From: Tubiluchus corallicola
Taxonomy: Eukaryota; Priapulida; Priapulimorpha; Priapulimorphida; Tubiluchidae
Length of the DNA: 64,000 nt
NCBI GenBank assembly: GCA_030141605.1
Contig: JAQGDQ010000045.1
Location: 744,001 to 808,000, forward strand
Direction of reading: 5' to 3'
Each line of letters opens with the position of its first letter. Position 1 is the stretch's first letter. Positions 13,372 to 60,259 of the stretch are shown here, piece by piece. The notes beneath the pieces are model-generated. The model was not told where the DNA came from. It did not search any database and worked only from the letters and a program-made list of their open reading frames with translations. Both the position numbers and the translations under genes were made by a program.

Positions 13372-15710
13372 TTAAAATGGTGGCAAACCTGTATTTGAAT
13401 GCTGTTGTTGCTGCTTTGATTTGCTTGTTGTCGCATATAGCTGTTTCTGAAAATTTTGAAACTGTACATTGTAGGCTGGATCAGATGAGACGGGCGGATA
13501 ATACGGCTGGTTCGGATCTAATGGCTGCATTGACGAGTTTATGTGCATTGACTGCGACATCCCCGGCATATTTTGTTGCATGTGAGCTTGCACTGACATC
13601 TGAGGATCCGGCATCATAATTTTTGGGCCTGGACCTGGTCCGGTAGGAGGTAGGCCATGCTGCATTCCACCGGGCATGTGCACAGACGCCTGCATATGCT
13701 GAGTGGGCACTGCCATTCCTGGATGTGCTGCCATTCCAGGACCAGTAACCATATTTGGATTATTAGGTCCTTGCATGCCCATACCTGGATGACCGGTAAC
13801 CTGATTCGTCCCTCCTACAGGTTGCATTAGATGTTGAGATGGATCCATTGGATTCTGCACATACATACCTCCTGTTTGAGGCATTACTTCTCCTTTCATC
13901 CCAACACCAGCGGGAAAATACTGCATATTTTGTTTTGAAGTCTTCTTCTCCATGGTTCCCATTGGCGATGCAAAACGCTGAAGAAAGTCAACATTTGGAG
14001 GTCGATTGATACCCATAGTTGGCCGAGGATTTGCTGGACGGTACTGAATTGTGTTTGGTGTATTAGCTTGCACCTGTACATTGGTACCTTTGAATGGTAC
14101 AGTAGGGGTAGGTCCACGCCGACTTTGCTGTGACATGCTAGTATGCATCAAACTACCCTGGCTAGCACTAACTGTTGTATAACCACTTGGTACCTGTGGA
14201 ACACCCATTGACATTGACTGATGCATTGCCATGCCACTTTGTGCCATGGCATTAGCATGATGAGAACTAGCTGAATCGTTTGTTTGTCCGACCTGCATAT
14301 TTGCACTATATGCAGAGCCTGGAACATTTTGAATGTTCAGCTGCTGTATCGACATTGTAGCATTCACATACGTGTTGTTCACAGTTGGTGGCATATGCTG
14401 AAGTGGTTGCCGTCCAAACTGTTGAGCATCGTGAGGCACTAATTCACCTGCGATCGTTTCTGGGTTAGGTCGAGGCACTGCACTACCAGGTGGATCAAAA
14501 TGAGATAGGCGACTACCCTGTAAATACACATCTTGCCCGTGTATTAAACCTTGCTGAGATGAGATTTGAGCAGGCACATTTTGCGGAAAATTCGGATCAC
14601 CTTGCACATTAACTGTACCAGGGAGTACCCTTTGCGTAACTGGCGAACCAATTCTTTGATTCATCATACTACCGGGCAAATTTGCGTGTTGTGGCACATT
14701 AGTATGAATTAACTGACCCGACTGATCAAACTGCCCATCCCCAGGAAACATTTTTAACTGTTCATCGACGTATCCTACAGAAGTTGGCACATTTGGTTCC
14801 ATATATGCAGTATTCAACTGCTTCTGTATTGTCAACTCTTGTGAATCAAATGCACTCACATAACACATGGGCTGTGGTGACGGCACTGGTATGACATCCT
14901 TCCTAAGGTCCATGTCCTTTACTTTGTTTGCAGCTTGCACATATGCTGGTGGCTTAGGCCCATAAATGGGTTCACCGGGTAATGGACTAGGAAAATCCTG
15001 AGGGCTTCTAGGCATCATCATACCGCTTTTGTACATTCGTTCTTGCTGCAACTTGGAAAGCATTGGGTCTGGACTGTTGTAGTTTTGGTCAAGGCCACCA
15101 GGTGGTACTGGATGTCGAGGCGGGGATCCCACTCCAGGACCCCGAGGTCCGAATTCGACTGGGCTTGGAAACGATTGAGGCATATGCGGTAAAGGGAAGT
15201 GCGGTGAGGTAGGGGAGGCTCTACCATTAATACTGAGTAAACGATGTCCTAAGCTTTGATTGTAAGAAGGCGGTGGGCCAGGAGGGCCAGATACATTTTG
15301 ATTCATCAAATGGCTTGGTTGTAACTGACCTTGTACTTGAACGGGCATGCCATGCTGTGGATGACCCTGTGGTGGTAAGCCTGCTTGTGGATGTCGATGC
15401 ACATGGCCCATAGCCACTGCCTGTTTTTCACGAGCATACTGTTCTTGCAGCCGTTGCCACTCAATCTGAGCTTGATTTTGTTCTGGTGATTGAGGCTGAG
15501 CCATGCGATGAGGCGGCATGCCCATCATTGGACGCTGCTGCATACCAGCCATCATGACAGGCTGCTGCTGTGCATAGTAATTATCTGGTGGACAGCCAGA
15601 GTGCTGGACAGGCGGCTGACACTTTTCTGGAAATAAAACTTCCTGCATACGTCTTATTTTGCGAAGTTGTTCCTCCCTCCTCTGAAGGTTCTGAGGTGTG
15701 AGATTCTCTC
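13372..15710 (-). CDS. BCL9-like gene, last exon: HD2 and long Met/Pro/Gln-rich C-terminus
   Basis: Acceptor tattttcttttag; 778 codons and a TAA stop at 13372. HD2 is the first 29 residues (NLQRREEQL, RMQEVLFPE). The remainder is low-complexity M/P/Q/G/N sequence with conserved islands: QIEWQRLQEQYAREK, PPPSYNQS and QNMQYFPAG. The tail ends in a KQQQQH stretch. Upstream in-frame codons from an ATG at 15738 are intronic (they cover the polypyrimidine tract), so that ATG is not the start. Confidence 0.93.
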
Positions 15711-18700
15711 CTAAAAGAAAATATGTTGTTATTGCCATAAAATACTCAGATGAAAAACTAAAATAATCAATACTATATACTCATTAACAAAGTGTTTTGA
15801 TTATAGAGAAGGTACAATTTGTCAAAAACACTTTTTATAAAGTATTATTAATTAGATTTATAAAATATGGCTTACTCGTAATTGGTATTTTACTAAATAG
15901 TGTCAAAAGTTCTCATTTTTCTGCAGGAATTTCTGCGATAAAGCAACGCTGATGGAAATATTAGGAAGCAAATTTCTTAATATGATTATACATGGTCATG
16001 TTTGCTTTGACGTTCATCATTAATATTATCACTTAATTTTTAATACATCCATATTACCTGCTTACATAAACAAAGCGGAAAAACTATGAAGACCATAATA
16101 ATCTGTTAGCTCAACAAATTAAAATTTTAATCATTCTAGTGCTCACAATTTTCATACAAAAAATATTGGAAACTGAGAAAATCAAAAGTAACCAAGCTAG
16201 CAATAAACTGGCTGCTAAGTTGTTTTTGTAAAAATGTAATAAGCCGCTAACACATTATAGGTGCTACATTATAGTCTTAAACCATTGCAAAGATACAAAC
16301 ACGCAATAACCAGCTGCTCACAAATGGAAACAAATCTTAAAATCAGCAAGAATAAAATTTAGATAACAAAACTATCATAACAGTAAGGAGTTGTCTCATC
16401 CAAAAACACACAAGAAAGCAAGCACCATTGCCGACTATTCCTACTTGATCTTTAAAATCAGCAAATCAGTAATTTGTACTGCTTGAAAATGCCTCTTTTT
16501 AACACAGTTAATACATTCATAAAACTGTGTGTTGTACTCGGGGTAACTAGCTGTAAACATGGCATTAAGCTGAAAATGCAAATGTACCACCACCATTAAC
16601 TATGCATGAACCTACATACCTTTTGACATAACATTACTTTCGGCAGACATTGGAGGTCCTTGATTAACACCACTTGGGCTTGAGGTAGCTCCCCACGAAC
16701 CAGGTTGATTAGGCCATTCATTACCTAACTGGTTGACTTTGTCTTGCAGCTGCTCAAGTGGTCTTGATGACCCTGTAAATATTAATGGCACCATTCTTTA
16801 TAATACTGCACCTATAATATTACATATTATATACTACGATTGTTGAATTATTCTACAAAAGATGATAGACAATTGTTCACAATGAATTTTAGAATATCAA
16901 CAGTTTAAGACAAAAAACTATACAAATTGCATGCATTTCACTTATAATCCTTAAATTCTCAATGTTAAATTTAACATGTGAGACATCAAATTGCAAAACA
17001 AATTGCTATATGGTAGTAAATACTCCATACAAGAACACTAAAATGAATGAAAAAAATTTTACATCAATAAAGAAGAAATGAAGTGTATATTAGTTCTCAC
17101 AGTTGAAATAACAAATCTGAGTTTTTACCTTATACATTAGTATATTCAAAAATATTATATTACAACTTGATAATGCCCGGAAATATGTTTTCTAAAGTTA
17201 AGCCGTAGCTGTAATAAAAATCTTTCTTTAAAAAATTCAGAAAACACGATTACTTGTCAAGCAACAGACATGGCTGTACTCTTTAGAGAAGCACTTACCT
17301 CAGCACTATAATTTACAAAACATACAAAGAGTATAAATTCATGTTTTGTTACAGGATAACAGAACAATTTCTAGACCACAACTCATTCTGACCCATGGTT
17401 TACAATACACATTTCATTACCTACAATATTACCAAGATGCTCTGATAATTACGCACTTAGACTGTAATTAACTAATGCAAGTGTAAGTTAATGATACTTC
17501 ACAACAAGGAAAAATTTTCCAATAGCAACCACGTTTATGACAGCCAAACAAGTTTCCAAAAATAAAAACATGGCAAACTTTCAAGTACAAAATTTCATTA
17601 CTGGAACAATAAAGTTAAAAGAATTAGGTTTGCACGGTAATAATCTTCTAAAGTTAATCTTCAAAACAATATTTTCTCTTTTGATATTTTATAGATGAGA
17701 TCATTTTGGGCTATGATCTTAAATTGGTTATAATTTTCCTTTAATATAACAACTGAGAAGTTACATACCGACTGGCACAGAGCATATTAGTCCAGGTTTA
17801 CTACCAGTTTGATTCATTAATGGAGTTGAGAACCTATTCCACTGCTGCATCTTCATAGGGTATTTCTAAAAAAGTATCTGCACTTTAATTGTCAAATCTT
17901 TTTTTTTCTGCGGACAGACAAGTTCATTTACGTAATGGATGACAAACAAATCGCACATGCTATAGAGAATAGACTGCTTTGCATGACAAAGGTAATCCCA
18001 AATAAAGTCCCAGAGATTTTACAAGGAAACTATGGGTCGAAGTAGCTTTGAAGTTAATTGGAAAGGTAGCAAAAATTTAAGCCTGATTTTGCAATTCTAC
18101 GATCCGTACATTTTTTTTAAATTCATAGTACATAGTTATACATGCTGCTGCCCTCCTGAAAATGTTCTTGCATAGTTATGCTGTCATAATGGAGAAAATT
18201 ATCAGTTTCAAAACATTGTTAGCTGTATAATAAAAGCCACTTTTTTATTTGAAGTGAATACAATGTACTAGTTTATTTAAACTCCAATGGAAAACGCTGT
18301 AAAAAATTGTAAACAGGGGCATGCAAAATAAAGTTTCGTGCAAGATTTCTTTGAAACTGCGACTGCTTGGCTTTACCACCAAGTGAAAGAAACAAAGTTA
18401 AAGGCAACCAGTACTTTGCCGGGGCACAGAGTCAGCAGGAGATACGAAGTAATTCATGCAAGCTTGTCTGGTACTCATTACTGAACGCTTTATTGGACGC
18501 TATCCAAATTTTTATTGCAAGCCTTATTAATAATTACAATTAGATATTAATTATATAAAATATGGTGCATGTATAATAATAATAATCAAACTTTTATATG
18601 ATAACTTCGTGTTAAGGGTCAGTTAATTAATTGTTGGCTTTGTCTACCTTAACGTAACAACAAGGCACTGTTCATGTGAAATACAATTCGGAAGGTTGCA

Positions 18701-21700
18701 GGCTGCATTCTCAAATTACTTAGGCACTTTTCTTTGTGTATTTACAACTTGTTGCAATAAATAATGATAATTGCCTTACTGTTTACAGTTTTCCAAAATT
18801 GGGTGAACCCAAAAACGGTGTTGTCGCCTCCTGTATAGCCTACTTGGCTTTTTCTTTAACTACCACACCAAAATAAAAATCATCTTTCTTCTACAAAGTC
18901 TCATGTCTAGAATTTCATGCTAAAAATTTTGCCCCGTTTATGACATATTGTATGGAATGAGTACAGACGTAGTGGAAATAATTTTTGCGGATGTAAAACA
19001 TGCAGATAGAAAACTCTGAGTGTGTGCGTGCCTGTGCAGACGCAGTGGAAATGCCGTAGGGCCCCATAGATAAGCAAAAACCAAATCCTGTTGATATATC
19101 AGTTCAGAAGGTTAATTATAAGCTGACCTGTAACGTCATAATGCTTAAAAACAAACAGGAAAATATCATATAATTTCCAATGTCCCAGAAAAAACGTGAG
19201 GTTAACCTCCAATTTCCTATATTTAGATAGTTTGAAACATTGAAAAAAAAACAATAAACTGACCTCATAATCTTATTTGTACATTTGTACTACATTAAGA
19301 CCACTCATTTTGATGAAAACAACAAAATATACTTATTTCATTTTCTGGTAGCCGATTAAACAAAATTCAACACTGTATAAACAAAATTCAACACTGTATA
19401 AACAAAATTCAACATTTCACCTGTACAGCACATCTTTATTACTTGGTTTTCATGTTTTAAATTACACGTGAATTTTGCCTACAAATTACACTTGAAATTT
19501 ACCTGCAAGAAGTTTTTAGTTAGAGGCTGTGCACAATGAAAAGCAATTATTGATGGATAAACCGACTGCATCACAAGCTCGGCAGCCTTGTTAGCCATTT
19601 GTGTTGTGAAAACAAATATTTGACTCTGTTGTTGCATATATTGGGGATCTGTCGAAGATTTCGCTGTATTATTCATAGCCTGCAAGAAAACAAAAACAAT
19701 GCAACTACGACACTACAAAAGAACAAACTAAAAATACAAGCCAAATTATGTTTCAGTTTTGCTTTTGTGTAAAAGTCACATTTACATCGGCCTATAGAGG
19801 ACCATACACATATAACAATACCAAGTTCAGGGTAGGCAGGTGACAGAAAATGTGACGCACTATAATGCAAGGTAGGTAAGTGATTTTGTCATAAAATATC
19901 GTTATCAAGAGTTGGAACAAGGAATGGCTGGCTGTAATCGGCCGTGAGGAGGAGGAATCTGCAGAATGGATCGATGAGAATGCGTTCAAGTGAATTACGG
20001 CTGCCACCGACTGCACTGCTGATGCCAGTAGAATCCACTGATGGTTTCCTTTAATTAACACAAATGATGCTGTTGCCTGTCTTTGGGAGGAGGTAAGGAT
20101 AAAATGTAGAAAAAGCTACATCGGCCGTGTGATATCAATTTCAATACAAGGGACAGGTAGGTGGTGAGGCATATGATAACGTCATTATAATACAAGGTAA
20201 GGTTGCTTATAATACAAACTTGCTATCGTTATATGTGGATGGCCTCCAGACAGAAGATGGGTATATAGAAAACGAGTATGTAGGCTAAATAGGGCATGCA
20301 TGACAAAACCAAGCTACTATAACATTAAGTTCTCATTTAATGACGCCTCAGTAGTGACGAGTCGTTTCTGAAAGATGTTACATTTTAGTCATAAATTGTA
20401 TTTCATTCTACATCTGTGGCAGGAAGCCCGACATGTGGCATGTGCATTGTACATATGCCTATTATGACATTTGTTGAATGCTGGTGCACGACGAAGAACT
20501 TCATTTGTATAAAAGCAATGAACGTCGAGAACTGCATTCTCGAGAATTATAAAATGACAATCCAAGCATTTTCTGTTTTTTTTAATAAGCTACTACTAAA
20601 TGAAGTGTACAAAGTCTAATAATTATTGATTCAAAGATTTTTCAAAAACCATTGTGAACAAACCTGTGGCGTGTTCGCCGTTTGATTTTTCCCACTATTT
20701 TGCCTCTGTACTTTTGTAGATGAAACATTAACTTGTGATGGAGTCTGTGGTGTTGACACTAACATTTTAAGATCTAAATTCTTTTTATCGTCATTTCCGC
20801 TTGAAGGCTGACCTGCACATATAAAAATATCCACAAGTGTAATATAATGATTACAATACATGATCCAATGTAACGTTTGTAATACAATATAATGGTATAA
20901 TGATCCTATAGTAGAAATGTTTGCACAATACATGATAATCATCCATTACAACAAAATGTATATACGCTATAAATACATTTAGGAAAAATGTTGACAAGGA
21001 AAAAGCTAGTACATGTTAACTCTGTTTAATTTTTTGGTTTAAATAAATAGGTCTATTGTGATTTGCATATTTACGCTAATATTGTCTGAATATTTATTTA
21101 CAAAATTGTTATAGTTTTCGTTACAAAACACTAAAATGTGAACTATAAACCACGTTTTTTGAAGAAATTAACAGTACTGAATTAACAAGGACTTTTCTTT
21201 TAGCTTAGCACACTAATACATCTACTGCTTTGGTAAATGCTTTTATTGTTACTATGGTTATTGCCATAAATAAAGACTAAGATATGACGATGATCTATTA
21301 AACGAAGGCGCTATCATAACTTATTCACGTGCTTTATTTAAGTCCATTATTCAATGAATAATGTTGTCGGCCTCGTCACCGTCTTAATCTGTGATGAGCA
21401 GGCAATCACAACAACAAGGAAGAAGGCAAGGAATATTAAGATGAAGTCTCATAATGTTATTAAGATAATAATAAAGCCAGCTGATAATCAAACTAAACAA
21501 ATGGAAATTAACGGTGAAAAAGTATGAGCAAATCTGCAATACCCTGTGATTGTGGTGTAGCTGGTGTACTGGGCATTATTTGACCAACAGATGGTAAACC
21601 AACATCTCCACTGTCTGACACCTCTTTCTTTATATCATCAGACTTAACAACTGTAGAGTCATCAGTTTCACTATTACTAGCACCTGGCTTCTTGACAATT

Positions 21701-23949
21701 TTTGTCATTGCTTCAACTCGTTCGCGCTTCGACAACTTATTATTTTCTATAAAACCTTTCTGATCCTTGGCTCCTTCTTTTGCCTAAAAACAGAAAATGA
21801 AACAGAATTAGACATAACACTATTTTAGCAGCACTACTGCGATAAAAAACAACACTAAATAATGAATTCAATTAGTGAATGAGTTATGGTTTCTACAACT
21901 GGGCTTTTCAATAATAAAGCAAAATGCTACAGTCCCAGCATTTCAATACTTCTTCAAAACAGTTCTTTTTCAAAATATTTTATACTAGCTATGTACTGTT
22001 TGTCATAATTTTGGCAAGTTTATTTTGAAAGACAGGGGCAAAACTGACCCTTTAAAAAATAACTCAAAATTTTAATTATAAATGTGTTATTGGTAGGCAG
22101 CGTGCTGAACATTTATCAGAGTTTGCCTGTCTGTCCATGTAATATTCAAGAAAATCTTGAACATACTTTAACCAAATTTACCAGAAAGACTGACCAGATT
22201 TAGGTGATAATTTATTTGACAATACCAAAGAAATCAACATTTGCTGATTACTAGTTTCATGGAAGGGCTCTAATTCTATCTGTCCTACTAGTTTCATGGA
22301 AGGGCTCTAATTCTATCTGTCCAAGATGTTTATCTTAAGGAGTTATGGATAGATTACAATGACAAAAGGGCTACAATCAAAGAAAAGCTGACTATATTTT
22401 GAGATGAATGGCCATCTGAAAATAACTTAATTGAATTATCATGGATGTCTACGTGATGTCATAAGAGAGTGCTGTAGAAAACTTCCAAAAACAAGCAAAG
22501 AATCCCAAAGAACAATTACTGCCATACACACTATACATTTTTTATTTTGCCAAGTCTTAAAAGTTTAAAACGTTAGGGTGATGCTCACTATGCCTAACAA
22601 GTTATTGACAATTTTTGGTCAAGGGACTCTACCCAAATCTCTACTCATCTGGAAGTTGTTTTTGTTGTTAGGAAAGAGCTTTTGAAAAAAAGGCTTAAGA
22701 CTCTGTGAACTCGCAGCGGATCTTCCTGAAACTTTATACTAGAACAATTTCCACATTGATTGGCAAATAGCATTTTCCATCTGCCATTTTGAATACGAAA
22801 TTGCGACACCATTTTCGAAAAAAGTCTAAGGCTCCGCCAATTTGCAACAAATCGGCACGAAAAATAGGAATATACTAGAATGAATTCTGCATCGATTAAT
22901 TTGAACTTCAATTTGCCATCTTAAATTCAAAACAGTGACAGTTCAAGTTGAATTTACTCAATATCATAATTAGTTGAGTCTAAAAAATATAACTACCTTC
23001 AACTGAGGTTCTATCACTGGAAAAAGTGTTTCATTCACGTATGCGAATAAATCCTTCTCTGCCGGACACGTGCTGTTCTGATACTGCTTGAGAAAGTTTT
23101 GCCAGTGCAGCAGCGTGGAACATATACACTCAAAGTCTCTCTTTACTGGCTTCTTTGACGTATTTTCCTTAAACAGTTTTAATTCTGCAACACAAAGTTC
23201 AATAATTTAGTAATAATCAAATTATAAAAAAAGAGTAAGAAAGGTAAATGAAATAAAAACTCACTCGCAAATGAATTGCCAAGTAAAATTTATTAAAGCA
23301 TTCAGCAGATTCTCCGATATGAAACATTTATACTTTCTACTGTAAAAGGGTGTACAATACATGAAAATTTAATGAAGAGCTTTACAATGAAATCGCTGAT
23401 ATCAATGTAAATATTTAAAGGAGAAGCGGACGATTGTGTAGATATTAGTTCAAAATAAAGTATGCTCTAAAATATAGAAAATTACAACAGCTTATTTTAC
23501 ATCAAAGCTTAGATTAAATAATAATTACTTCTGAATGTTAAATTTTGTTAAACCTACGTGCAGCTCAGCGAACATACTAAGACTGGCAATGGAGCCTTTT
23601 TGTCACATTTGTCATATATGAGCAATAGCAATCTTCGCTTAAGCAGACGTGTTTGACGTGCAGGGAAGATGCCTACCATTGCACAAGCTGTGGTTAGTTT
23701 GTGGCATAAGCGACAGCTGTGTTCAGTTGCCTTTTCATTAACTTTCCAAGCTAATTATTCAAATACTAGAAACAACTGCTAGCGTTTATAGGTAAGAAAA
23801 TGTATATTTTGAGCAGCAAATTAAAATGACATATGTCTAATCAGTCGTATAGTTTTTCTTTATTTCACTAGCTAATCACTAAAAAACCTCACATAGTAAT
23901 ACAGTGTAATAATGATAGTGATAATTATGTTTAATAATGATGATGATGG

Positions 23950-23989
<40 letters not shown>

Positions 23990-25414
23990 AATAATAATAA
24001 TAATAACAGGCTATTAAAATGATACAAAACACGTAATGCACTACATATTATAAGTGCAGAGTACATAACATTTGAAATGAAAATAAAAAAAATCTGGTTT
24101 GCTTAGCTCTAAATATGAACTTTCTTTAAACACACAAACAGTGATGAGCTGAACAATTATTCAAAAGTCCAGGTGCTTAAATTATGAAGATAAGAATACT
24201 ATGCAGGTAGTATATTCACTTGTTAGATGCTTCCCTTGAAAACATGCTGGACAATAATGTAAATTAAGAATTTTTTCAGAAAAACTTATATAAAGGAATC
24301 AATATACACTTAATAGGTTGACCGTAACATAACTTGCAAATGACAGGCAAGTTGAAGCAACAGATTAAGAACTGGGCACCCAACCATAACCATAACTTGA
24401 AAATCAGGAATTGCATCTATTTACACTTTTGAGAAGCAAGTAATTATACATAATTTCATCAGTACAATCCTCCGTCTGTCCTAAATACAAAATTTCACGT
24501 ATGGCAGGTGATTGTTGACACTAAATAGAAGGAGCTATATAGGCAATATTTAAAATGCTTTTTAGTCAATTACTTAGTAATTTCAGTTATCCTACAATGT
24601 CACTTAACCTCTTAAGTTGTTTTAAAAAATGTAATGAGCACTTTTAGTGCATCTGAAGTAAAATACAGCTCTATGATAATAAAAGCCCAACACTTAAAAT
24701 TATGATATTAACATTATTTCTTTTACTACTTTTGTGCCATATTTTTCTGGGTCTGTATGCTGATGTGCATTTTATAATATTATTTTACTTGCACATCGAA
24801 ATAAAAATAAAAATGTAAAATTCTAAGTTATTAACTTATTGTGCAGAAAGTAAATCTTTTTAGGGACCAAACTGAATGCATAATTCACGCATAAACTTAG
24901 TTCACGAAATGGAATATTTCAGCCTTTTTTTCAATTCAGTTAATCAGTTACAAGAAACTCTTTAGAAATTAAAAAATGTTGAAACATCTAACTTAGTTAA
25001 TACTGTAAATCCTTTATAAAATACTAAACTAAACACTTCAGCAGAAATATTTTTGTACTCACTCATTGCAATTTGTAAAGCTAATCAAACATTTACCAAA
25101 ACTTGAAGAACATAATTTATGAACTTTTATGATCATATCATGAACTTTGCAATTCAAGATAATTTTTTTTGGTAAATAATTCACACAATCGATGTTTTAC
25201 ATTCATATCCGCAGAATTAGTACGTTGGTGAGAAAATCACATTCCTAATATTTTTCTACATTTATATACATACTTTTTTCTATACAAGTACATATACAAG
25301 AAAATAAATTTTTCCTAGAAAAAGCTAAAGACGTCGCAATAAATAAACTATGCACTTACCATTATACCAGTACTTATTATTAAAAGCATCCTGACCAATC
25401 ACCATACCATAATA
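13372..25414 (-). CDS. BCL9: BCL9/Legless-like Wnt co-activator with a CECR2-type N-terminal segment (8 exons, 5' end not located)
   Basis: Minus-strand exons: 25414-25360, 23184-22997, 21783-21543, 20812-20664, 19679-19503, 17865-17769, 16772-16620 and 15710-13372. All introns are GT-AG and the phases (1,0,1,0,0,1,1) keep one frame of 1132 residues to a TAA stop. Residues 1-90 match the CECR2 family (see the first two exon entries). About 232-266 is the BCL9 HD1 motif (starts IFVFTTQMANKAAEL), which in the family binds the Pygopus PHD finger. About 355-383 is HD2 (LRKIRRMQEVLFPE), the helix that binds beta-catenin. About 430-450 (QAQIEWQRLQEQYAREKQ) matches the conserved BCL9 segment TPEQIAWLKLQQEF. 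About 946-955 has QYFP, as in the C-terminal homology region. The rest is Met/Pro/Gln-rich disorder. Known role: scaffold linking beta-catenin to Pygopus in the nucleus. BCL9 identity is firm. The N-terminal join is inferred from splice phases only. The start codon is unknown; the first in-frame ATG is at 25405. Confidence 0.85.
16620..16772 (-). CDS. BCL9-like gene, seventh exon: linker before HD2
   Basis: Acceptor aatatttacag, donor AAAAG|gtatgt; 50 codons flanked by split glycine codons. Begins SSRPLEQLQDKVNQLG and continues in Trp/Pro/Ser-rich disorder. It connects HD1 to HD2 and keeps phase 1 on both sides. Confidence 0.82.
17769..17865 (-). CDS. BCL9-like gene, sixth exon: post-HD1 linker
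   Basis: Thirty-two codons plus one base; acceptor ttttttag, donor GTCG|gtatgt. Begins KYPMKMQQWNRF, directly continuing the TKNFLQ end of the HD1 exon. Invertebrate Legless proteins have a similar basic/aromatic segment after HD1, from recall. The frame continues into the next exon. Confidence 0.8.
19357..19413. repeat. 21-bp tandem repeat, about 2.7 copies
   Basis: The unit TAAACAAAATTCAACACTGTA is repeated directly inside the intron next to the HD1 exon. The first two copies are identical and the third is truncated. Confidence 0.85.
19503..19679 (-). CDS. BCL9-like gene, fifth exon: HD1 (Pygopus-binding) motif
   Basis: Fifty-nine codons; acceptor gttttcttgcag, donor TTGCAG|gtaaat, phase 0 at both ends. 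Contains IFVFTTQMANKAAELVMQ followed by IIAFHCAQPLTK. This is the HD1 motif of BCL9/Legless (human VFSTEMANKAAEAVLKG...), which docks on the Pygopus PHD finger. The ANKAAE core is fully kept. Confidence 0.93.
20664..20812 (-). CDS. BCL9-like gene, fourth exon: Ser/Thr/Gln-rich linker
   Basis: Forty-nine codons in phase with both neighbours; acceptor atatgtgcag, donor CCACAG|gtttgt. Composition is rich in S, T, P, Q and N with a QTPSQV motif. There is no folded domain, as expected for the disordered stretch that precedes HD1 in BCL9 proteins. Confidence 0.8.
21543..21783 (-). CDS. BCL9-like gene, third exon: lysine-rich linker
   Basis: Eighty codons between the acceptor tctgtttttag and the donor CAGG|gtattg. 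It starts AKEGAKDQKGF, contains KLSKRERVEAMTKIVKK and ends in a TPATPQSQ low-complexity tail. The KRER cluster followed by acidic Ser/Asp sequence resembles the N-terminal basic region of vertebrate BCL9 (KGKRERS...). It may be where native BCL9 sequence begins, and if so the boundary between the two homologies is the intron at 21784-22996. Confidence 0.75.
22249..22322. repeat. 37-bp perfect tandem duplication
   Basis: Two identical copies starting TACTAGTTTCATGGAAGG, in the intron between the second and third exons of the BCL9-like gene. Confidence 0.9.
22997..23184 (-). CDS. BCL9-like gene, second exon: CECR2-like helical segment
   Basis: The acceptor is ttgtgttgcag and the donor AAG|gtagtt; it enters in phase 1 and leaves in phase 0. 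The 62 codons begin LKLFKENTSKK and continue through CSTLLHWQNFLKQYQNST to NETLFPVIEPQLK. This aligns without gaps to the region after the WHIM motif in CECR2 as I remember it (CQTEEEWRQVTESFRERT ... LSEDFLPEI). Shared positions include the C-x-T-x3-W spacing, E..L and P.I. No bromodomain exon follows; the next exon in frame leads into BCL9 sequence. Confidence 0.65.
23185..25359. other. Intron of the BCL9-like gene
   Basis: About 2.2 kb of AT-rich intron between the two CECR2-like exons, containing the trinucleotide microsatellite. No other feature seen. Confidence 0.6.
23934..24007. repeat. (GAT)n/(AAT)n trinucleotide microsatellite
   Basis: A run of GAT units passing into AAT units within the intron at 23185-25359. 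A serine-rich minus-strand ORF there is its translation, not a gene. Confidence 0.95.
25360..25414 (-). CDS. BCL9-like gene, first recognised exon: CECR2/WHIM-type GxDxxxNxYWY segment
   Basis: The acceptor is ttttttctag and the donor is ATG|gtaagt-like (AATG|GTAAGT). It encodes YYGMVIGQDAFNNKYWYN. The pattern hydrophobic-G-x-D-x4-YWY is what I recall from the WHIM region of CECR2 ([13 protein letters not shown]). It enters in phase 0 and leaves in phase 1. An in-frame ATG lies four codons in, and an in-frame TAG overlaps the acceptor. The exon is therefore either internal, with exons missing upstream, or carries the start codon after a non-coding 5' part. Confidence 0.6.
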
Positions 25415-36405: not shown

Positions 36406-36724
36406 ACCTACATCCTACCTATACCATTTGCGACTGCATTATAGCTGTTCCAGCTGCAAAAAAGATCTGCATCTAAAGGCTAACTATACCAAACTACAAA
36501 AAACCAAAAGGTGAAATGTGCAAGATAAAAAGTATGGGCCCTACAAACGAAAGCTTGTCAAAAAAACCTACATCCTACCTATACCATTTGCGACTGCATT
36601 ATAGCTGTTCCAGCTGCAAAAAAGATCTGCATCTAAAGGCTAACTATACCAAACTACAAAAAACCAAAAGGTGAAATGTGCAAGATAAAAAGTATGGGCC
36701 CTACAAACGAAAGCTTGTCAAAAA
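36406..36724. repeat. 160-bp tandem duplication
   Basis: Two practically identical copies beginning ACCTACATCCTACCTATA (starts 36406 and 36566). The lack of divergence implies a recent duplication, or an assembly duplication. Confidence 0.95.
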
Positions 36725-38109
36725 ACAAGGTCTCTTTTTCACAAATTACGTAGCATAGTCAGTATAGGACAAAAAAACCAAAAATTAATAATCTACTTTT
36801 TTAATCTTCTTATCCAGGCACTGATCAAAGAGCTGCAGTTGTAAGGCAATAAGGCCTTTCAAGAGAGTCAGTAAATTACTTGGTGCTCAGTAGCAGTAGT
36901 ATTTACGCCTTGCCAGTGCTCACTAACCATTCACTGTGTATTACGGACAAAACACGGCTTATTACCGATCCAATCATACAGGTAATTTCAATAAAAGCCC
37001 GGTATTACTTCCCTTCCAGCAAAATTGCTTTGTCAAACGACGCATTTTGCCAAAGTAACAAAATGAGGCGCACTACTAACTCAAGTGCTGTAAGGAAATA
37101 GAGGGAAATCTAGTTGTAGATGTCAGAAAAGCGTAAGAACATAGCATGATTTGCTGTCTTGCACGTGTATCAGTACTATACACCTAATTTGAATGTTTAA
37201 TAACGTGCATAAATGCAGCAAGTCGATAAAAAGCGTAATTTTGTTAACCCAAAAGATTAACGACATTATGAACGTAGACGTCTTTGTAATTGAACACTGA
37301 TTAAATTTTTCTCTTTTTAAAACTCCCAAGTACAATAATTTTCTCCGTAACCTTTCTGCGTCTTTCAAAAGTGTAAAATTAAATATGGATTACATAAGCC
37401 ATGGTAATTGAAATAGCAAATTATTAAAGCGCATACCTGACTGAGTAAATTCAATGGAGGTAACCATGGAAACCTTTTGTATGCATTTTTCCACATCATA
37501 AATAAAAACAAAATTTATTAAAAATGATCTGCCTTAGTGTATTATTCCTGTGAAGTTTTACCATGGCGAATTATTAAACAAATGAAACTTGCTAAGACAA
37601 TGTAAGCTCGCCACAATAACTAAAACAAATGACTATTTTTGTACACCATACTGTTGTTTAAAATAATGTTTTGATAAGTCGTTGACGTCAAAGAGAGCGA
37701 AGAGTTTCAACAAAAAAGAAAAATCAAAAATAAAACTGTCATGCCTACGCTGCTATCTGAAAACCACTTGTATTTACGAAAGTGCTTAACCAGCGTAATA
37801 TAGGTTTAGCATCTAAGCATGATCTAAGCACTAGTTTAATTCACTTAGACCAGAATGAAATTTTTGTTTTACTTTTCCTTGCAATGCAGTTGTAAACTAT
37901 ATAGTATTGTATGTAGTAGACTATAGACTATTATTACTGAAACTATTTGGCTCCCACCAAAACAAATCAAGGACCGAACAGCCCATTTTGGATCCAAATC
38001 TGAAAAGACTTTAGTTACTGCATGTCACGACAACTGCAGGATCTAGTCTTGCAACCGTCAGTCGCTAAATGAAACTTGAGGAGACAGCTTGAATAGTCTG
38101 TTCAATGAG

Positions 38110-44573: not shown

Positions 44574-44960
44574 TCAACAGCGAGTTTTGTTGGAACATGT
44601 TTCTTTGGATTTACGACAATCTGAGATCGCTCTTTTTGCATTTCTCTTGCATTTTCCCGTGCTTTTACTGTTCTTAATGACAACAGCATCATCCTGCTTG
44701 GTCTTAAGTTCTTTCTTCTTTTTATTAAACATTAAACCATCTGTGACAGGCATTGACGTGTCTGTACTAAATAATTTTGGCAAACAAGAGCCATCGTTAT
44801 CTGCTTTATCTGACGATATACTTTGGGTCCGCTCTTGTTTAGACTTTTTCTTCAATTCATCCATTTTCTTTGAGAAGTAGTCCTGTAAGGACATTGTCGA
44901 GGTAAAAAGGGGCTCGTTTCTCTCTTCTTCAAGAGAAGCAGAATCAGCACTGTTAACTTC
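44574..44960 (-). CDS. PINX1: PINX1 exon 5 (C-terminus)
   Basis: Acceptor gctttttttag; 128 codons to a stop at 44574. An acidic Ser/Glu linker leads to the SLQDYFSKKMDELKKK motif and a Lys-rich, Cys-containing tail. A minus-strand ATTAAA about 35 nt past the stop (TTTAAT near 44537) may be the poly(A) signal. Confidence 0.93.
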   Translation of the reverse strand, partial: EVNSADSASLEEERNEPLFTSTMSLQDYFSKKMDELKKKSKQERTQSISSDKADNDGSCLPKLFSTDTSMPVTDGLMFNKKKKELKTKQDDAVVIKNSKSTGKCKRNAKRAISDCRKSKETCSNKTRC

Positions 44961-47900: not shown

Positions 47901-50900
47901 GTGTGCAGAGAAGTAATTAAGGTCTAACAGATAAAACTCAGTCAAATGAATTGTGTCGGGAAAACACTAAGCTTTGCAACTCACAGCTTGTGTGTTCATG
48001 CTTTCAGAGTGTAATAAATTAATGCCTGTTGTTAACATAACAGTGTAGTTAGTTAAAATACACCAGTTGTTGTTTTTATTTATGAACATAAATGATTACA
48101 GTTTCTTTACTGCCGCTGAATCTTAACAATCGGGTGCCCAGGTACCTGACGGGTATAAAGAACAGGGTAGCTGAGTCTGACTTTTGCTGTCCGTGCAAAC
48201 ACTAACATACATGTGAATTTACAATGTAACATAGCAAAAATGTCATATATGCTGATTTTTCAGCAGTTATTACCTTTATTATCTTCTTTCATATCTAACC
48301 TAACAAAATCAGGATTGCCATCTTCATTTGCGCCTAGTCCTTTGCCTTTGGTCCATCCCATTCCTTTGAGCATCCGTTCACCAATTTTATTGGTGTCTAA
48401 AATATAGAACACTGTTCAAAGACAAATCTAATACAACTATAAATACAGCCATTGGCCGAGTGGTTAGATAGCATTTCAAAAGTATATGGTCACACTCTAT
48501 GTGACTAGATATATATAAAAAATGTAATATTTAGATAAAAAAAATCAACCTGGTTTTTGGACAGAGGTGATTACAATCTTAGTGATAAAGAATAACAGAC
48601 AATAGCAGCAAAATTCTTGAGCAGCTGGACTATCATGCCAAGACATTTAAGCAATACATTACTAACTGGGCAACTTTATTTATACACAAAGAAAATAAAG
48701 GCATAAAATGATTAGGTGAATCATGTGTTCCAGACACATGGAACTAAGGTTGGCCATTGAATGGAAAATTTCGAATTTGTGTAGAATACATGCAATTAAT
48801 TTTAAAATGTTTTGAACAGAATTTTAATCGAATAAAAACTTACATTATTGATTTAAAGTAAGAAATTGACTAATAAATTATTAATAATGATTTCCGATTT
48901 GTTACTGTAGAAAAGTTAGCAGCATTTTTATAGTTTCAAAAATAATGTAAAGATGTAAATTTAGGCCTACTGCTAGCTGATCATCTGTTTAACCTGTTCG
49001 TTAGAATAAATTGTGCTACTACTTGTAAATTTTCGATTTCAAAAAATATCAAATTTAAAAGTTCAACTTATTTAAGCCCTATCTGGATTCGAGGTATTCT
49101 TTCTGCAATTTTGTAGCTTTTAAACAAGCACAAGATTGTGAAATTTGTTCAAGGATTACCAGATGAATGCAAACTTTTCTGCCTTTTATTACACTAAATT
49201 AAGGCATTTACAATCGACAAACAAGATAACATTGCCTGATCAGTAACAACAATGTGATTTCCTTATGACAATCAGGCAACACAATTCTATGAATTTTTCG
49301 AATGTGGGACGCAGTCGAATCAAATGTTTTTAAAGGAAAACCATTTGCAGTTCTACAGCAACAGTATGATAAGTTTAAAAGCTGGAATCCATCGAGATTT
49401 TTAAGACTGCAATCGTTCTTATTTACTGAACAACAATGTCAAGTCACACACGAAATCTGCATGTCAGAGTGGGACAAATATTTAAAGTCTATTTTCAAGT
49501 AGATATTATTTGTAGTGTTCTTTAATATTATTATTATTATTTTGTAATACGTATTGCATAACTGTGATTTATTTGTGTTTAACCCAATAAGTTGAAATGT
49601 AAGTATGATACAGAACGAGTCTAGAAGTCTAGCACCGATTATTTTTCTAAACAGGTCTGATACTATGTCAAAGACTTCAGAAGTACAGTTCCCGAAAATC
49701 GAGCAGCATCGACTACGATGAGTGCCAGCTACTTTTTTTCTTACTTGTATGCCAGTCAAATAAAACATTAGTACTTAACAGATTTAGTAACCAGAACAAT
49801 TTTACACACCTCACCAAAAACCACTAGCCTAAAACATTGAAACATTATAGAGTTCATAATTCTTTTCAATTACAATTACAACAAAATTCGGTTCAGCTTT
49901 GGTCTGATATTTCAATTCTAACTTAATATTTCATTCAGAATTCAGTTCGGTAGCACAGCCAATCGTTCAGTTAAGCTTCAGCTTCGTGGCACCCAAGCAT
50001 AAAAAATCGGCTTGGGTTTGGTTGGTGAAAATGTGCCTTTGGTGCACTTCTAGGCAGCTCATGTACATTCAACTTGTTAGATGCTTTAAATGACCCTGAC
50101 TGGAAATTGAACAAGTTTGGAATACAGATGTGATATATAATGACCCTCAGAAGTATTTGAGGTTCCCCTTAAAAAAACCTCTTTTGAAACTGCAGTGTTT
50201 TTTATATTTACTTGGTAACATCTTGGTAAGGATTCAAGATTTTTTACCACTTCAGTTGCGGTATGTAATAATCAACTCTAATAAGTCGCCCGATGTTGTT
50301 ATAAAGAGCGGAATGCACGGGCCTTTGTTATTTCTTATCTGCGCCAATGACTTACTTGACAAACTAACATCAACAGTCAAAATGTTTGCTGCTGACATGA
50401 AGATATGTAAAAATATAGCCAGTTCATGGTCGTACACACTCCGGCCAGATATATCAGTCATGGATGCATGATCCAGAAAGTGGAAAATGTCATTGAAGAC
50501 AAACAAGTGTATGTAAAACTACATCTAGGGAACAACCAAGTCAAATTTAACTATATCGTGAGTGATATAACGCAAACTAAGTATCAAGGGGATCTCGGGG
50601 TACGTGTGGATAACAAGTTATCATTCAACCAACATCTGATGGTCACCAAGAAACAAAGAAAAAATATTTGGTTAATTAAAAGAACTTTTGGTTTCTTTTC
50701 ATTTCTCTAGACCCTCTAGACCTTTCCGATTCCGTATAAAACATTTGTCTGTCCTATTCTTGCTCTTCTTGACTACAGAGATGTCGTATGGAATCCATCC
50801 AGATTCCAGACTGAATGCAATCGGGAAAGTGGAATCTATGCAACGTAGAGCTATAAAAATAGTTCCTGTCATGAGACATATAACATGTTCAGAACAGATG

Positions 50901-55155: not shown

Positions 55156-56409
55156 TCATTTGTCAAAATTTGTTAGTGGCGGAACTTTGGCAACTTCAAA
55201 GAATACTTTATGAGAATATTTGGTTCTTACAGTTTTCAATGACTTAGCCATAGATGTCTGAAATGACAGCATACTGTTTAATTTTTTAGCCAATGGCATT
55301 AGTTCATTCTCTGTGTATCCCGTATAGTATTCCATTGTGTTTCCCCAACTTTTACAAGATTTCATTTTCATGGCTAAAAACAAAGATGAAGCTGCCATTT
55401 CACTCTCTAAATAATCTATTAGGTCATATTCTTGCAATGATAGCTCAAGAATATAACGTCCCAGTGTTAAAAGTTCCATGTTGGCTTTTGCACACTTGGC
55501 ATATCGTCGCAGGAAACGATATGAACTTGGAATGCCAAGATCGAAATCCAGAATACGTAATAACGACATTTCCATATTCAGCAGATCTCGTTTGTTGTAA
55601 GCATCATCGCAGATATACAGAAAATCATCAACAAGAGGCGGGCAGCGCTCATCAAATTTACATGCTACAAATAATGCCGTTGATCCAACTAACTGCAATT
55701 GCTCCTTCTTTATGACTGTTTGCGATAAATAAAGATCAAGTATTTTCACAGCCAAATAAAGTGTTTCATGATTTAACTCAAAGTTCTCCTGAACCTCCAC
55801 CATCCAGTCAACTAGAATAGCTCTCATTGTCTTATTAACTTCTCCTTGCTCGTCCATGTACTTTTTGATAACAAAATTTGACTCTCTAAGTTTGTAATAC
55901 TCGAAGATATCAAAAGCGTACTCTGGTACATGAAAAACATCGTTCTTCATTTCCTCATCAATATAATAATCAGGTTTTATCTTTTCTTGTGTTTTCGGCT
56001 TCCACGATTCATCTCTGCTCAACATATGTTCAATAAAGTTGTCGTCAGAATCAGAGGAACTCTTCTGACTTAGTCTTAAACACAAAGATTCTGAATTTTC
56101 ATCAGATGACTGTGATGATCGGAGGACGGGTAACGTATTAGCGTTACCACCAACAACTGATTGGTTTTTCTGGTTCAATTCACGTTTATCTTGTAACACA
56201 TGCTTCTTTTTTCGTGTAGGATTAACAAGCACTTTCTTGTTTGGCTCTTTTTTCGTGTTAAATTTTGCATTTGTCAAATCATCAAATGCTGATCGCTTTT
56301 TAGGTATTCTTTCTGGTGAGTTCTCTGCTGATCTTTTGCATTGCAGGACACAATTGTTTTTGTCAGGTGCATTTAACCGCCCTCGGTGAATCGCTTTCAT
56401 GTCCCCCAT
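55156..56409 (-). CDS. CCNB3: Cyclin B3, intronless and complete
   Basis: 417 residues from ATG at 56409 (an in-frame TAG sits just upstream) to the stop at 55156. Residues 9-18 (RGRLNAPDKN) fit a destruction box, and KRSAFDDLTNA (38-48) is the cyclin A/B3-type N-terminal motif. The first cyclin fold starts at about 165, with MRAIL at 195-199 (the hydrophobic docking patch) followed by DWMVEVQENFELNHETLYLA. The second fold begins near 290, and the C-terminus KYSHKVFFEVAKVPPL is the B3 signature. Known role: Cdk1 partner that promotes anaphase onset by activating APC/C, in mitosis and female meiosis. The length is normal for invertebrate cyclin B3. The absence of introns is unusual next to its neighbours and may mean retroposition or intron loss. 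The ORF shows no damage. Confidence 0.96.
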   Translation of the reverse strand: MGDMKAIHRGRLNAPDKNNCVLQCKRSAENSPERIPKKRSAFDDLTNAKFNTKKEPNKKVLVNPTRKKKHVLQDKRELNQKNQSVVGGNANTLPVLRSSQSSDENSESLCLRLSQKSSSDSDDNFIEHMLSRDESWKPKTQEKIKPDYYIDEEMKNDVFHVPEYAFDIFEYYKLRESNFVIKKYMDEQGEVNKTMRAILVDWMVEVQENFELNHETLYLAVKILDLYLSQTVIKKEQLQLVGSTALFVACKFDERCPPLVDDFLYICDDAYNKRDLLNMEMSLLRILDFDLGIPSSYRFLRRYAKCAKANMELLTLGRYILELSLQEYDLIDYLESEMAASSLFLAMKMKSCKSWGNTMEYYTGYTENELMPLAKKLNSMLSFQTSMAKSLKTVRTKYSHKVFFEVAKVPPLTNFDK

Positions 56410-56560
56410 TGTCTAATCGCCGATTTTAACTGCAAATCTGCCAGTCTAAACACTTAAAATAATAAAAGCCCGGTACTGTTAAATAAGTAGTTGTCGCAAG
56501 CACAAATTATTTATAATTATGAATCAAACCAACCGTTTAAAATTCGAAACTGCCTCTCTT
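56410..56560 (-). promoter_or_regulatory. Cyclin B3 promoter with MYB/CHR-like sites
   Basis: About 120-135 bp upstream of the ATG the sequence has AACCGTT (56531-56537, a MYB-type site), TTTAAA (56536-56541) and TTCGAA (56543-56548), contiguous with one another. TTYGAA-like CHR elements and MYB sites recruit MuvB complexes at G2/M genes. No CCAAT box was seen within about 350 bp. Confidence 0.35.
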
Positions 56561-58426: not shown

Positions 58427-58973
58427 AAAAGTAAAGTAAAGTAAAGTAAAGTAAAGTAAAGTAAAGTAAAGTAAAGTAAAGTAAAGTAAAGTAAAGTAAA
58501 GTAAAGTAAAGTAAAGTAAAGTAAAGTAAAGTAAAGTAAAGTAAAGTAAAGTAAAGTAAAGTAAAGTAAAGTAAAGTAAAGTAAAGTAAAGTAAAGTAAA
58601 GTAAAGTAAAGTAAAGTAAAGTAAAGTAAAGTAAAGTAAAGTAAAGTAAAGTAAAGTAAAGTAAAGTAAAGTAAAGTAAAAGTAAAGTAAAGTAAAGTAA
58701 AGTAAAGTAAAGTAAAGTAAAGTAAAGTAAAGTAAAGTAAAGTAAAGTAAAGTAAAGTAAAGTAAAGTAAAGTAAAGTAAAGTAAAGTAAAGTAAAGTAA
58801 AGTAAAGTAAAGTAAAGTAAAGTAAAGTAAAGTAAAGTAAAGTAAAGTAAAGTAAAGTAAAGTAAAGTAAAGTAAAGTAAAGTAAAGTAAAGTAAAGTAA
58901 AGTAAAGTAAAGTAAAGTAAAGTAAAGTAAAGTAAAGTAAAGTAAAGTAAAGTAAAGTATAGTAAAGCAAAGG
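58427..58973. repeat. (AAAGT)n pentanucleotide microsatellite, ~105 perfect units
   Basis: About 545 bp of GTAAA units, 50 perfect copies then a single inserted A at 58681, then about 55 more, ending with a few mismatched units. The unit has no stop codon on the minus strand in any frame, so it yields long artefactual Leu-Tyr-Phe-Thr-Leu ORFs of about 200 residues. Confidence 0.98.
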
Positions 58974-59504: not shown

Positions 59505-60050
59505 CTTGCCATAATTTACTTTTGTTAACTCTGTCATATGCACTTGTGACTTGTCAGATCTTGCAAAACCTCCCATAGTTTTCTGTTTTGAGTTTTAGCG
59601 AGGAAAGTGTTTCCCTAAGCAAGGAACTATTATCGTATTATTTTCTGATCCTCTATCTGAACAAAACTTATTTCGCACATCAGATACAGCATTGTTTGTG
59701 GTCTTCTGTTGCCTTCACCAGCCAATCTTTTAAAATACTCGATAGAAGCTTGCACATTACTGATATTATTACAAAGTTTTTACAATTGTCTTCCCTCTCA
59801 AAATCATCTTTTTTTTTATAAATGAGACTAATCAAATCACCCTTCCATGAATAAGGAATACATTTGGATGAAAAGATATTGTTAAAATCTTTGCACAAGT
59901 GACATTAATTTTGCCTGGTGCTGCAGTAAACCCAGGAGATGTTCACCAGCAATTTGATCACTACCACATGCTTTACCTTTTTTAATTCCTTTCAAACGAT
60001 TTTCTAGTTCATTTTTAGAAATTTCTTGTATATAGTGAATGTTCCCAGTA
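59505..60050 (-). mobile_element. Decayed LINE reverse transcriptase
   Basis: The minus strand reads LKGIKKGKACGSDQIAGEHL (RT block 1, K.GKAPGPDGI), then IPYSWKGDLISLIYKKKDD (W..A.I.PIYKKGD) and VMCKLLSSIL. After several stops it gives SAYDRVNKSKLWQV (block with the catalytic Asp in the YDRV context). Multiple stop codons make it non-functional. Confidence 0.8.
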
Positions 60051-60259
60051 AGCGCTCCAAAGACTTATCAGACAAATCACCCAAGTTTATATCTCCCGAT
60101 TTTTAAAATTGACTACTCCAAACTCGTAACAGCTCATCAGCTATTTGTTCTTCATTGCCTGTTCTTTAACCAGTTTCATAAGACATGCGTACTAACATCA
60201 AACGTGTTAGCATACTTTTATTAAAATGCATCCAAAATTTCTTCTTAGTTATACCTAGA

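What the first reader, a model, noticed from the sequence alone, without database searches (positions are those of the whole stretch)
22997..25414. CECR2-type WHIM segment spliced in frame to a BCL9/Legless protein
Seen: two minus-strand exons with good splice sites encode VIGQDAFNNKYWYNELKLFK and CSTLLHWQNFLKQYQNST...LFPVIEPQLK. Phases (1 then 0) carry the frame on through two linker exons into the BCL9 HD1 and HD2 exons. Known: from recall, these align without gaps to CECR2 ([22 protein letters not shown] and CQTEEEWRQVTESFRERT...FLPEI), a chromatin-remodelling partner of ISWI ATPases. BCL9 proteins I know have no such segment. Inference: a fusion would tie an ISWI-remodeller contact to the beta-catenin/Pygopus complex. 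Alternatively, a truncated CECR2-like gene sits just upstream of BCL9.
Basis: partly seen in the sequence, partly recalled or inferred. Interest (0 to 1): 0.8.

Follow-up and report, generated by a model that had tools for sequence, protein, structure and literature searches.

The report
Wnt adaptor BCL9 with chromatin-remodeller half-domain
In an unidentified invertebrate, two exons just upstream of a BCL9 (Legless) gene encode half of a fold otherwise known from partners of ISWI chromatin remodellers, and they read in frame into BCL9; if transcripts confirm the join, a Wnt adaptor carries remodeller-type protein sequence.

Summary
E1 (25360-25414) and E2 (22997-23184), minus strand, encode a WHIM2-like motif (GxD...YWY) and a WHIM3-like block, closest to CECR2 among the loci compared. 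In a scan of the whole window with half-profiles made only from CECR2, the best hits are exactly E1 and E2, in order, same strand. The spliced 81 residues score E 2.2e-5 for 20,000 sequences. The genome has a separate CECR2, one BCL9 found and a Pygopus-type PHD. With one predicted bridge exon, the model from E1 on is one open frame of 1132 codons.

Corrections: the segment is half a module. No DDT or WHIM1 exon was found upstream, so ISWI binding is doubtful. Pfam does not recognise it, and single-sequence CECR2 searches miss it.

The E2-E3 splice is inferred from phase, from no CECR2-like exon in the 1.2-kb gap, and from E3 resembling BCL9. No transcripts or relatives were available. WHIM2-3 homology is very likely; a true BCL9 fusion about 60%; ISWI or nucleosome docking about 15%.

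The parts
25360..25414 (-). E1: exon with WHIM2-like motif, YYGMVIGQDAFNNKYWYN; in-frame Met at 25405 with G at -3 and +4 (an out-of-frame ATG with a short frame lies just before it)
   Evidence: Splice sites and frame. Best N-half hit of the CECR2 profile in the window, 10.3 bits, next 9.0. Motif hit shared with RSF1, BPTF, BAZ1 and CECR2 only, in 466,562 six-frame codons. Coding score uninformative, -0.4.
22997..23184 (-). E2: exon with WHIM3-like block, ELKLFKEN...CSTLLHWQNFLKQYQ...ETLFPVIEPQLK
   Evidence: Best C-half hit, 14.9 bits, next 5.6. Coding score 11.0 against a maximum of 6.75 over 481 overlapping open 62-codon stretches. 3' intron in phase 0, as in own CECR2, aligned with a two-residue gap.
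21784..22996 (-). Intron joining the WHIM segment to BCL9; carries a dispersed repeat; no CECR2-like exon found
   Evidence: (57 matches listed, one of them itself; a lower bound).
21543..21783 (-). E3: BCL9 N-terminal linker exon (KRER...)
   Evidence: Aligns with recalled human BCL9 N-terminus, z 3.0, p 0.012; not with the next own CECR2 exon, z -0.4. Coding score 21.2.
20664..20812 (-). E4: BCL9 linker exon
   Evidence: Frame and splice sites; coding score 11.3.
19503..19679 (-). E5: BCL9 HD1 (Pygopus-binding) exon
   Evidence: Matches PDB 3zpv (BCL9 homolog) E 1.9e-7 and BCL9 chains 2vpe, 2vpb, 2vp7 at E 5.3e-5 to 8e-5.
17769..17865 (-). Predicted bridging exon (97 nt, phase 0 to 1)
   Evidence: Better of two phase-compatible candidates passing my thresholds; weak acceptor, -0.9; restores the frame.
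16620..16772 (-). E6: exon between HD1 and HD2
13372..15710 (-). E7: last large exon with HD2 (beta-catenin-binding) and C-terminal region, to the stop
   Evidence: Pfam BCL9 PF11502 E 1.9e-7; PDB 2gl7 E 0.008 and 3sl9 E 0.0089.

Best explanation
The BCL9 gene of this invertebrate has an extra N-terminus. Two 5' exons, E1 and E2, encode a compact WHIM2-WHIM3 unit most like that of CECR2, and they are spliced in phase 0 to the first BCL9-type exon (E3). Most likely an old CECR2-like exon pair came to lie upstream of BCL9, and its phase-0 donor was joined to the phase-0 acceptor of BCL9. Translation may start at the Met inside E1, so the protein would begin with about 78 WHIM-like residues, followed by HD1 (Pygopus) and HD2 (beta-catenin). 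Shown: the sequence similarity, the open frame, the splice signals, a single BCL9 found, and a separate CECR2. Inferred: the E2-E3 splice, the start site, the fusion history and any function. Most likely function: an added protein contact surface on the Wnt enhanceosome. Binding to ISWI is possible but not favoured, because DDT and WHIM1 were not found.
For: Scan with CECR2 half-profiles: top hits are E2 and E1, same strand, right order. Spliced residues: 24.8 bits, E 2.2e-5, against 13.7 for the best of 20,000 shuffles; z 10.7 against own CECR2 with its linker shortened by me. At 26% and 22% identity, an intact frame, splice sites and coding-like composition in E2 argue against neutral decay. 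Phase 0 to 0 at E2-E3; full model of 1132 codons with one terminal stop. E3 looks like BCL9, not like the next CECR2 exon. No CECR2-like exon in the 1.2-kb gap, which is partly an old repeat. 5 of 5 matches of the BCL9 query are this gene. HD1 and HD2 match PDB chains. Weak: CpG depletion runs on from BCL9 to about 28 kb and ends at 28.3-29.5 kb.
Against: No transcript evidence. A phase match has a chance of 1 in 3. E1 has an acceptor, so at least one upstream exon is unseen, and an out-of-frame ATG precedes the proposed start. Pfam WHIM1 and WSD do not match, although WSD gives 18.3 bits to own CECR2. Recalled human CECR2 by tblastn with the limit at E 50 did not report E1 or E2. Own CECR2 WHIM2-3 against the genome found only CECR2 (2 of 2 matches). 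With a longer CECR2 profile the spliced residues reach only E 0.0066. The E2 donor is mediocre (1.7) and E1 has no coding signal. Polyadenylation-like hexamers in the E2-E3 gap: 4 against 2.6 expected. CpG o/e is uneven inside BCL9 itself (0.84 and 0.70 in two introns) and noisy at three other genes. The intron inside the YWY block is absent from own CECR2, so E1 is not a recent copy of it.
Confidence: 0.6

Rival explanations
1. E1 and E2 are the last exons of a separate small or truncated WHIM gene that ends just before BCL9. E2 would read on eight codons to a stop and be polyadenylated within the 1.2-kb gap, and BCL9 would start from its own 5' exon.
For: E2 read-through meets a stop after VVIFFRLN, and AATAAA/ATTAAA hexamers occur at 22546, 22216, 22076 and 22024. 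The acceptor of E1 shows that something lies upstream.
Against: No DDT, WHIM1 or other CECR2-like exon found in the window. Hexamers 4 against 2.6 expected. A 3' end and a BCL9 promoter would both have to fit in 1.2 kb of CpG-poor, repeat-bearing sequence. E2 has a donor in phase with E3.
Confidence: 0.2
2. E1 and E2 are relics: exons of a decayed CECR2-like paralogue, not now translated, that still look open.
For: Low identity to CECR2; E1 has no coding signal; half of the module not found.
Against: E2 is open with a coding score above 481 of 481 overlapping controls; both exons keep splice sites and phase; GxD, YWY, T...W and P.I positions kept in all three rows.
Confidence: 0.1
3. Chance similarity with no homology to WHIM proteins.
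For: Pfam finds nothing; single-sequence searches do not pick it.
Confidence: 0.05
4. The WHIM-like start is an old, clade-wide part of BCL9 in this lineage rather than a recent fusion. This rival concerns the origin only and overlaps with the best explanation, so the confidences do not add up to one.
For: Deep divergence from own CECR2 (26% identity) and a different intron inside the YWY block argue for age.
Against: Not tested. Human BCL9 and fly Legless N-termini, as recalled, lack it. No relatives could be searched.
Confidence: 0.35

Closest known systems
CECR2 (CERF remodeller subunit), WHIM2-WHIM3 region
   Same: GxDxxxxxYWY motif, then T...W...E..L...P.I block in the same order; phase-0 intron after the block at nearly the same place
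   Different: No DDT, WHIM1, long linker or bromodomain found; an extra phase-1 intron inside the YWY block; 26% (own) and 22% (human, recalled) identity
BCL9 / Legless
   Same: HD1 and HD2 with PDB matches, KRER linker; long Met/Pro/Gln-rich tail by eye
   Different: N-terminus begins with a WHIM-like segment that human BCL9 and fly Legless, as recalled, lack
RSF1, BPTF, BAZ1, BAZ2 (names given by eye to other WHIM loci of the same genome)
   Same: RSF1, BPTF and BAZ1 share the GxD...YW motif with E1
   Different: E2 aligns best to CECR2 among those compared
KIAA2026/BRD10-like gene on C53
   Same: Shares with CECR2 a helical region (PF23450: recalled human CECR2, C53)
   Different: Its following segment does not align with E1-E2, z 0.5

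Membership tests
BCL9/Legless | HD1 (Pygopus PHD contact) | tested here: met
   E5 to 3zpv E 1.9e-7 and to 2vpe/2vpb/2vp7
BCL9/Legless | HD2 (beta-catenin contact) | tested here: met
   PF11502 E 1.9e-7, over cut-off; 2gl7 E 0.008
BCL9/Legless | Pygopus partner in the same genome | tested here: met
   PHD query (recalled human PYGO2): best of 18 matches is 63% over 57 residues at C1089, E 2.7e-21
WHIM/WSD proteins (E1-E2) | WHIM2 motif GxD...YW | tested here: met
   but Pfam WSD gave no match. WSD gives own CECR2 only 18.3 bits, below cut-off, and did not list it genome-wide
WHIM/WSD proteins (E1-E2) | WHIM3-like block | tested here: met
   E2, 14.9 bits, top hit in window
WHIM/WSD proteins (E1-E2) | WHIM1 motif upstream | tested here: not met
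   No hit by CECR2 profile or by phase-0 donor scan; a divergent exon could be missed
CECR2 | DDT domain | tested here: not met
   No hit in the window; present in own CECR2 at C1902
CECR2 | bromodomain | tested here: not met
   Recalled CECR2 with bromodomain against the window by tblastn: best E 8.1, none convincing; present in own CECR2
ISWI accessory subunit | binds ISWI SLIDE domain | not testable with these tools
   Structure prediction switched off; SLIDE family search unanswered
Gene fusion | spliced transcript E2-E3 | not testable with these tools
   No RNA data; only phase and frame

The most novel reading that the evidence does not exclude
A BCL9 with a built-in half-WHIM module that docks an ISWI ATPase, or nucleosomal linker DNA, directly onto the beta-catenin/Pygopus enhanceosome, so that one protein links Wnt input to nucleosome sliding in this lineage.
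Probability: 0.15. Interest if true: 0.8.

Novelty: new variant of a known kind. Interest (0 to 1): 0.5.

Why it matters
A 2017 study describes Legless/BCL9 as a scaffold of the Wnt enhanceosome, with BAF remodeller subunits in its proximity data; the words ISWI, CECR2 and WHIM do not occur in its main text (PMC5352222, passages). A natural fusion of a WHIM segment to BCL9 would be 'Rosetta stone' evidence that ISWI-type remodelling and BCL9 act together, testable in ordinary model animals. It would also show WHIM2-3 used without DDT-WHIM1.

Tried and rejected
Upstream DDT/WHIM1 exons: a CECR2 profile over six frames of the window and 20 kb of flanks found none. A scan of phase-0 donors at 25.4-44.5 kb gave best 30 against 25 on the plus strand, and 32 on both strands of 44.5-64 kb, so nothing above background. 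A look-alike at 28.3 kb (IHSKVKILSRLCN, E 31) lies in a stop-ridden 47-bp tandem repeat. E3 as a CECR2 exon: rejected. KIAA2026/BRD10 as source: rejected. Lineage: a COI query found nothing, so no mitochondrial contig is held or the query failed. TTAGGG arrays gave 63 forward and 45 reverse overlapping matches, some of them inside contigs. CpG o/e as a map of the transcription unit is suggestive but uneven inside BCL9 and noisy at CECR2, RSF1 and KIAA2026. Literature: 'CECR2' with 'BCL9' gave 8 papers, 7 listed, none about a fusion by title and abstract start; 'BCL9' with 'DDT domain' gave 0; a fusion/domain-architecture search gave 5, with BCL9 in 0. This covers only the held open library.
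Full report
What is there. The window is C1048:744001-808000 of a 343.5-Mb unnamed assembly, an animal by its genes. On the minus strand the BCL9 gene model runs from 25414 down to 13372. Exons: E1 25360-25414, E2 22997-23184, E3 21543-21783, E4 20664-20812, E5 19503-19679, a predicted bridge 17769-17865, E6 16620-16772, E7 13372-15710. Joined, they give 1132 codons with one terminal stop. Without it E5 (ends in phase 0) cannot enter E6 (needs phase 1). The bridge has a weak acceptor and was the better of two candidates passing my thresholds.

BCL9 identity is secure. E5 matches solved HD1 chains (3zpv E 1.9e-7; BCL9 chains from 5.3e-5). E7 carries HD2 (PF11502 E 1.9e-7; 2gl7 E 0.008). 5 of 5 matches of the E3-E7 query at E <= 1 lie in this gene, so one BCL9 was found. 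A Pygopus-type PHD exon, the expected HD1 partner, lies at C1089 with 63% identity over 57 residues.

Is the WHIM claim real? Results against: the 81 residues match neither Pfam WHIM1 nor WSD. Recalled human CECR2 by tblastn with the limit at E 50 reports neither E1 nor E2. Own CECR2 WHIM2-3 against the genome finds only CECR2, 2 of 2 matches. Pfam is a weak judge here: recalled human CECR2 is itself below the WSD and WHIM1 cut-offs (24.8 against 25.4 bits; 13.7 against 19.1), own CECR2 gets 18.3 bits from WSD, and WSD does not list it genome-wide.

Results for: against own CECR2, with its linker left short by me, spliced E1-E2 aligns with z 10.7, and each exon alone with z 6.4 (E2) and 6.2 (E1) over 1000 shuffles. 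Against recalled human CECR2 it is weaker, z 5.5, 5.8 and 3.5. Among own CECR2, RSF1, BPTF, BAZ1, BAZ2 and KIAA2026 loci, CECR2 scores best for both exons. The BPTF, BAZ1 and BAZ2 loci were 3-kb pieces, and a further WSD gene on C1923 was not compared. A two-sequence CECR2 profile of the WHIM2-3 region, linker shortened, gives 24.8 bits, E 2.2e-5 for 20,000 sequences; the best of 20,000 shuffles is 13.7 bits. With the longer CECR2 profile the same residues give E 0.0066, and the E2 fragment alone gives 0.0082 in 6884 six-frame fragments.

The least biased test used separate profiles for the two halves, made only from CECR2, over the whole window. The top C-half hit is E2 (14.9 bits; next 5.6) and the top N-half hit is E1 (10.3; next 9.0), same strand, right order, about 2.2 kb apart. 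In 40 first-order Markov windows the C-half score was reached in 0 (highest 14.3), the N-half in 3, and an ordered pair within 5 kb in 0. The motif [ILV]GxD(4-6)YW[YFLIV], written after seeing the family, occurs 5 times in 466,562 six-frame codons: in E1 and in the RSF1, BPTF, BAZ1 and CECR2 loci. Those four I had fetched as family members.

Is it coding? E2 scores 11.0 on a small 3-periodic model trained on six own coding pieces, above 481 of 481 overlapping open 62-codon stretches of 26.5-43.5 kb (maximum 6.75). E1 is too short to judge at -0.4. The model was trained in part on BCL9 exon 7, and its non-coding training set overlaps the control region, so this is supportive only.

Where does the segment come from? 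The genome has a separate CECR2 on C1902 with DDT, WHIM and bromodomain exons (5 of the 29 matches; exons read). Own CECR2 ends its WHIM3 exon in phase 0 at K|, and E2 ends in phase 0 at K|, aligned with a two-residue gap. So the fusion point may be an inherited CECR2-type intron. But E1-E2 split the YWY block by an intron that own CECR2 lacks, and identity is 26%. It is therefore an old divergent copy, not a recent one.

Does it join BCL9? Phase 0 meets phase 0, a one-in-three coincidence. E3 resembles the recalled human BCL9 N-terminus around KRER (z 3.0, p 0.012) and not the next own CECR2 exon (z -0.4). The 1213-base gap holds no CECR2-like exon that I could find and carries a dispersed repeat with at least 56 further matches. 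Polyadenylation-like hexamers are 4 against 2.6 expected. CpG depletion continues from BCL9 past E1 to about 28 kb and then rises to 1.02 at 28.3-29.5 kb, as for one unit with its promoter near 28-29 kb. The measure is uneven inside BCL9 (0.84 and 0.70 in two introns) and noisy at three other genes. None of this replaces a transcript.

What would it do? In print, a structure prediction has the ISWI SLIDE domain interacting with DDT and WHIM1-3 of Itc1, with DDT, WHIM1 and WHIM2 at its tip (PMC12093815, passages). WHIM1-3 with DDT are described as a module for linker DNA and ISWI, with WHIM1 residues working with DDT and WHIM2 (PMC8536118, passages). CECR2 works with SNF2L and SNF2H (PMC11661176, a preprint, passages). 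Here WHIM2 and WHIM3 are present, but DDT and WHIM1 were not found. I therefore favour an added protein contact surface of unknown partner over ISWI binding.

Verdict (my estimates). A real WHIM2-3-like segment: about 0.93. A true spliced N-terminus of BCL9: about 0.6. ISWI or nucleosome docking: about 0.15. No printed report of such a BCL9 was found in the searches named, which cover the held open library only.

The ISWI odds, given as both 0.20 and 0.15 before, are now 0.15 throughout. No other odds changed.

Noticed in passing
window 55159-56412 (-): A cyclin gene (Cyclin_N E 5.6e-46, Cyclin_C E 1.6e-32) in a single open frame of 418 codons; by eye and recall cyclin B3-like, so possibly intronless.
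   Followed up: partly
window 44574-44960 (-): Open frame that by eye and recall resembles the C-terminal part of PINX1 (SLQDYFSKKMDELKKKS); Pfam gave no match.
   Followed up: partly
window 58428-58972: Long pentanucleotide array AAAGT, about 109 copies at 99%; it opens three overlapping minus frames of about 194-219 codons.
   Followed up: no
window 36406-36725: Perfect 160-bp direct duplication, two copies at 100%, so probably recent.
   Followed up: no
window about 22606-22960 (-): Dispersed old repeat, mostly about 66-79% identity, at least 56 further matches in the genome; a perfect 37-bp duplication lies nearby at 22249-22322.
   Followed up: partly
L020/L021 (C53:115001-135000): The stretch with the KIAA2026/BRD10-like exons also holds long open tandem arrays (for example NGKQLNV and AELADLLCESADVVATYS units).
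   Followed up: no
window 50100-50710 (+) and 59680-60064 (-): Fragments that by eye look like reverse-transcriptase pieces of old retroelements; Pfam gave no match for the one tested.
   Followed up: no
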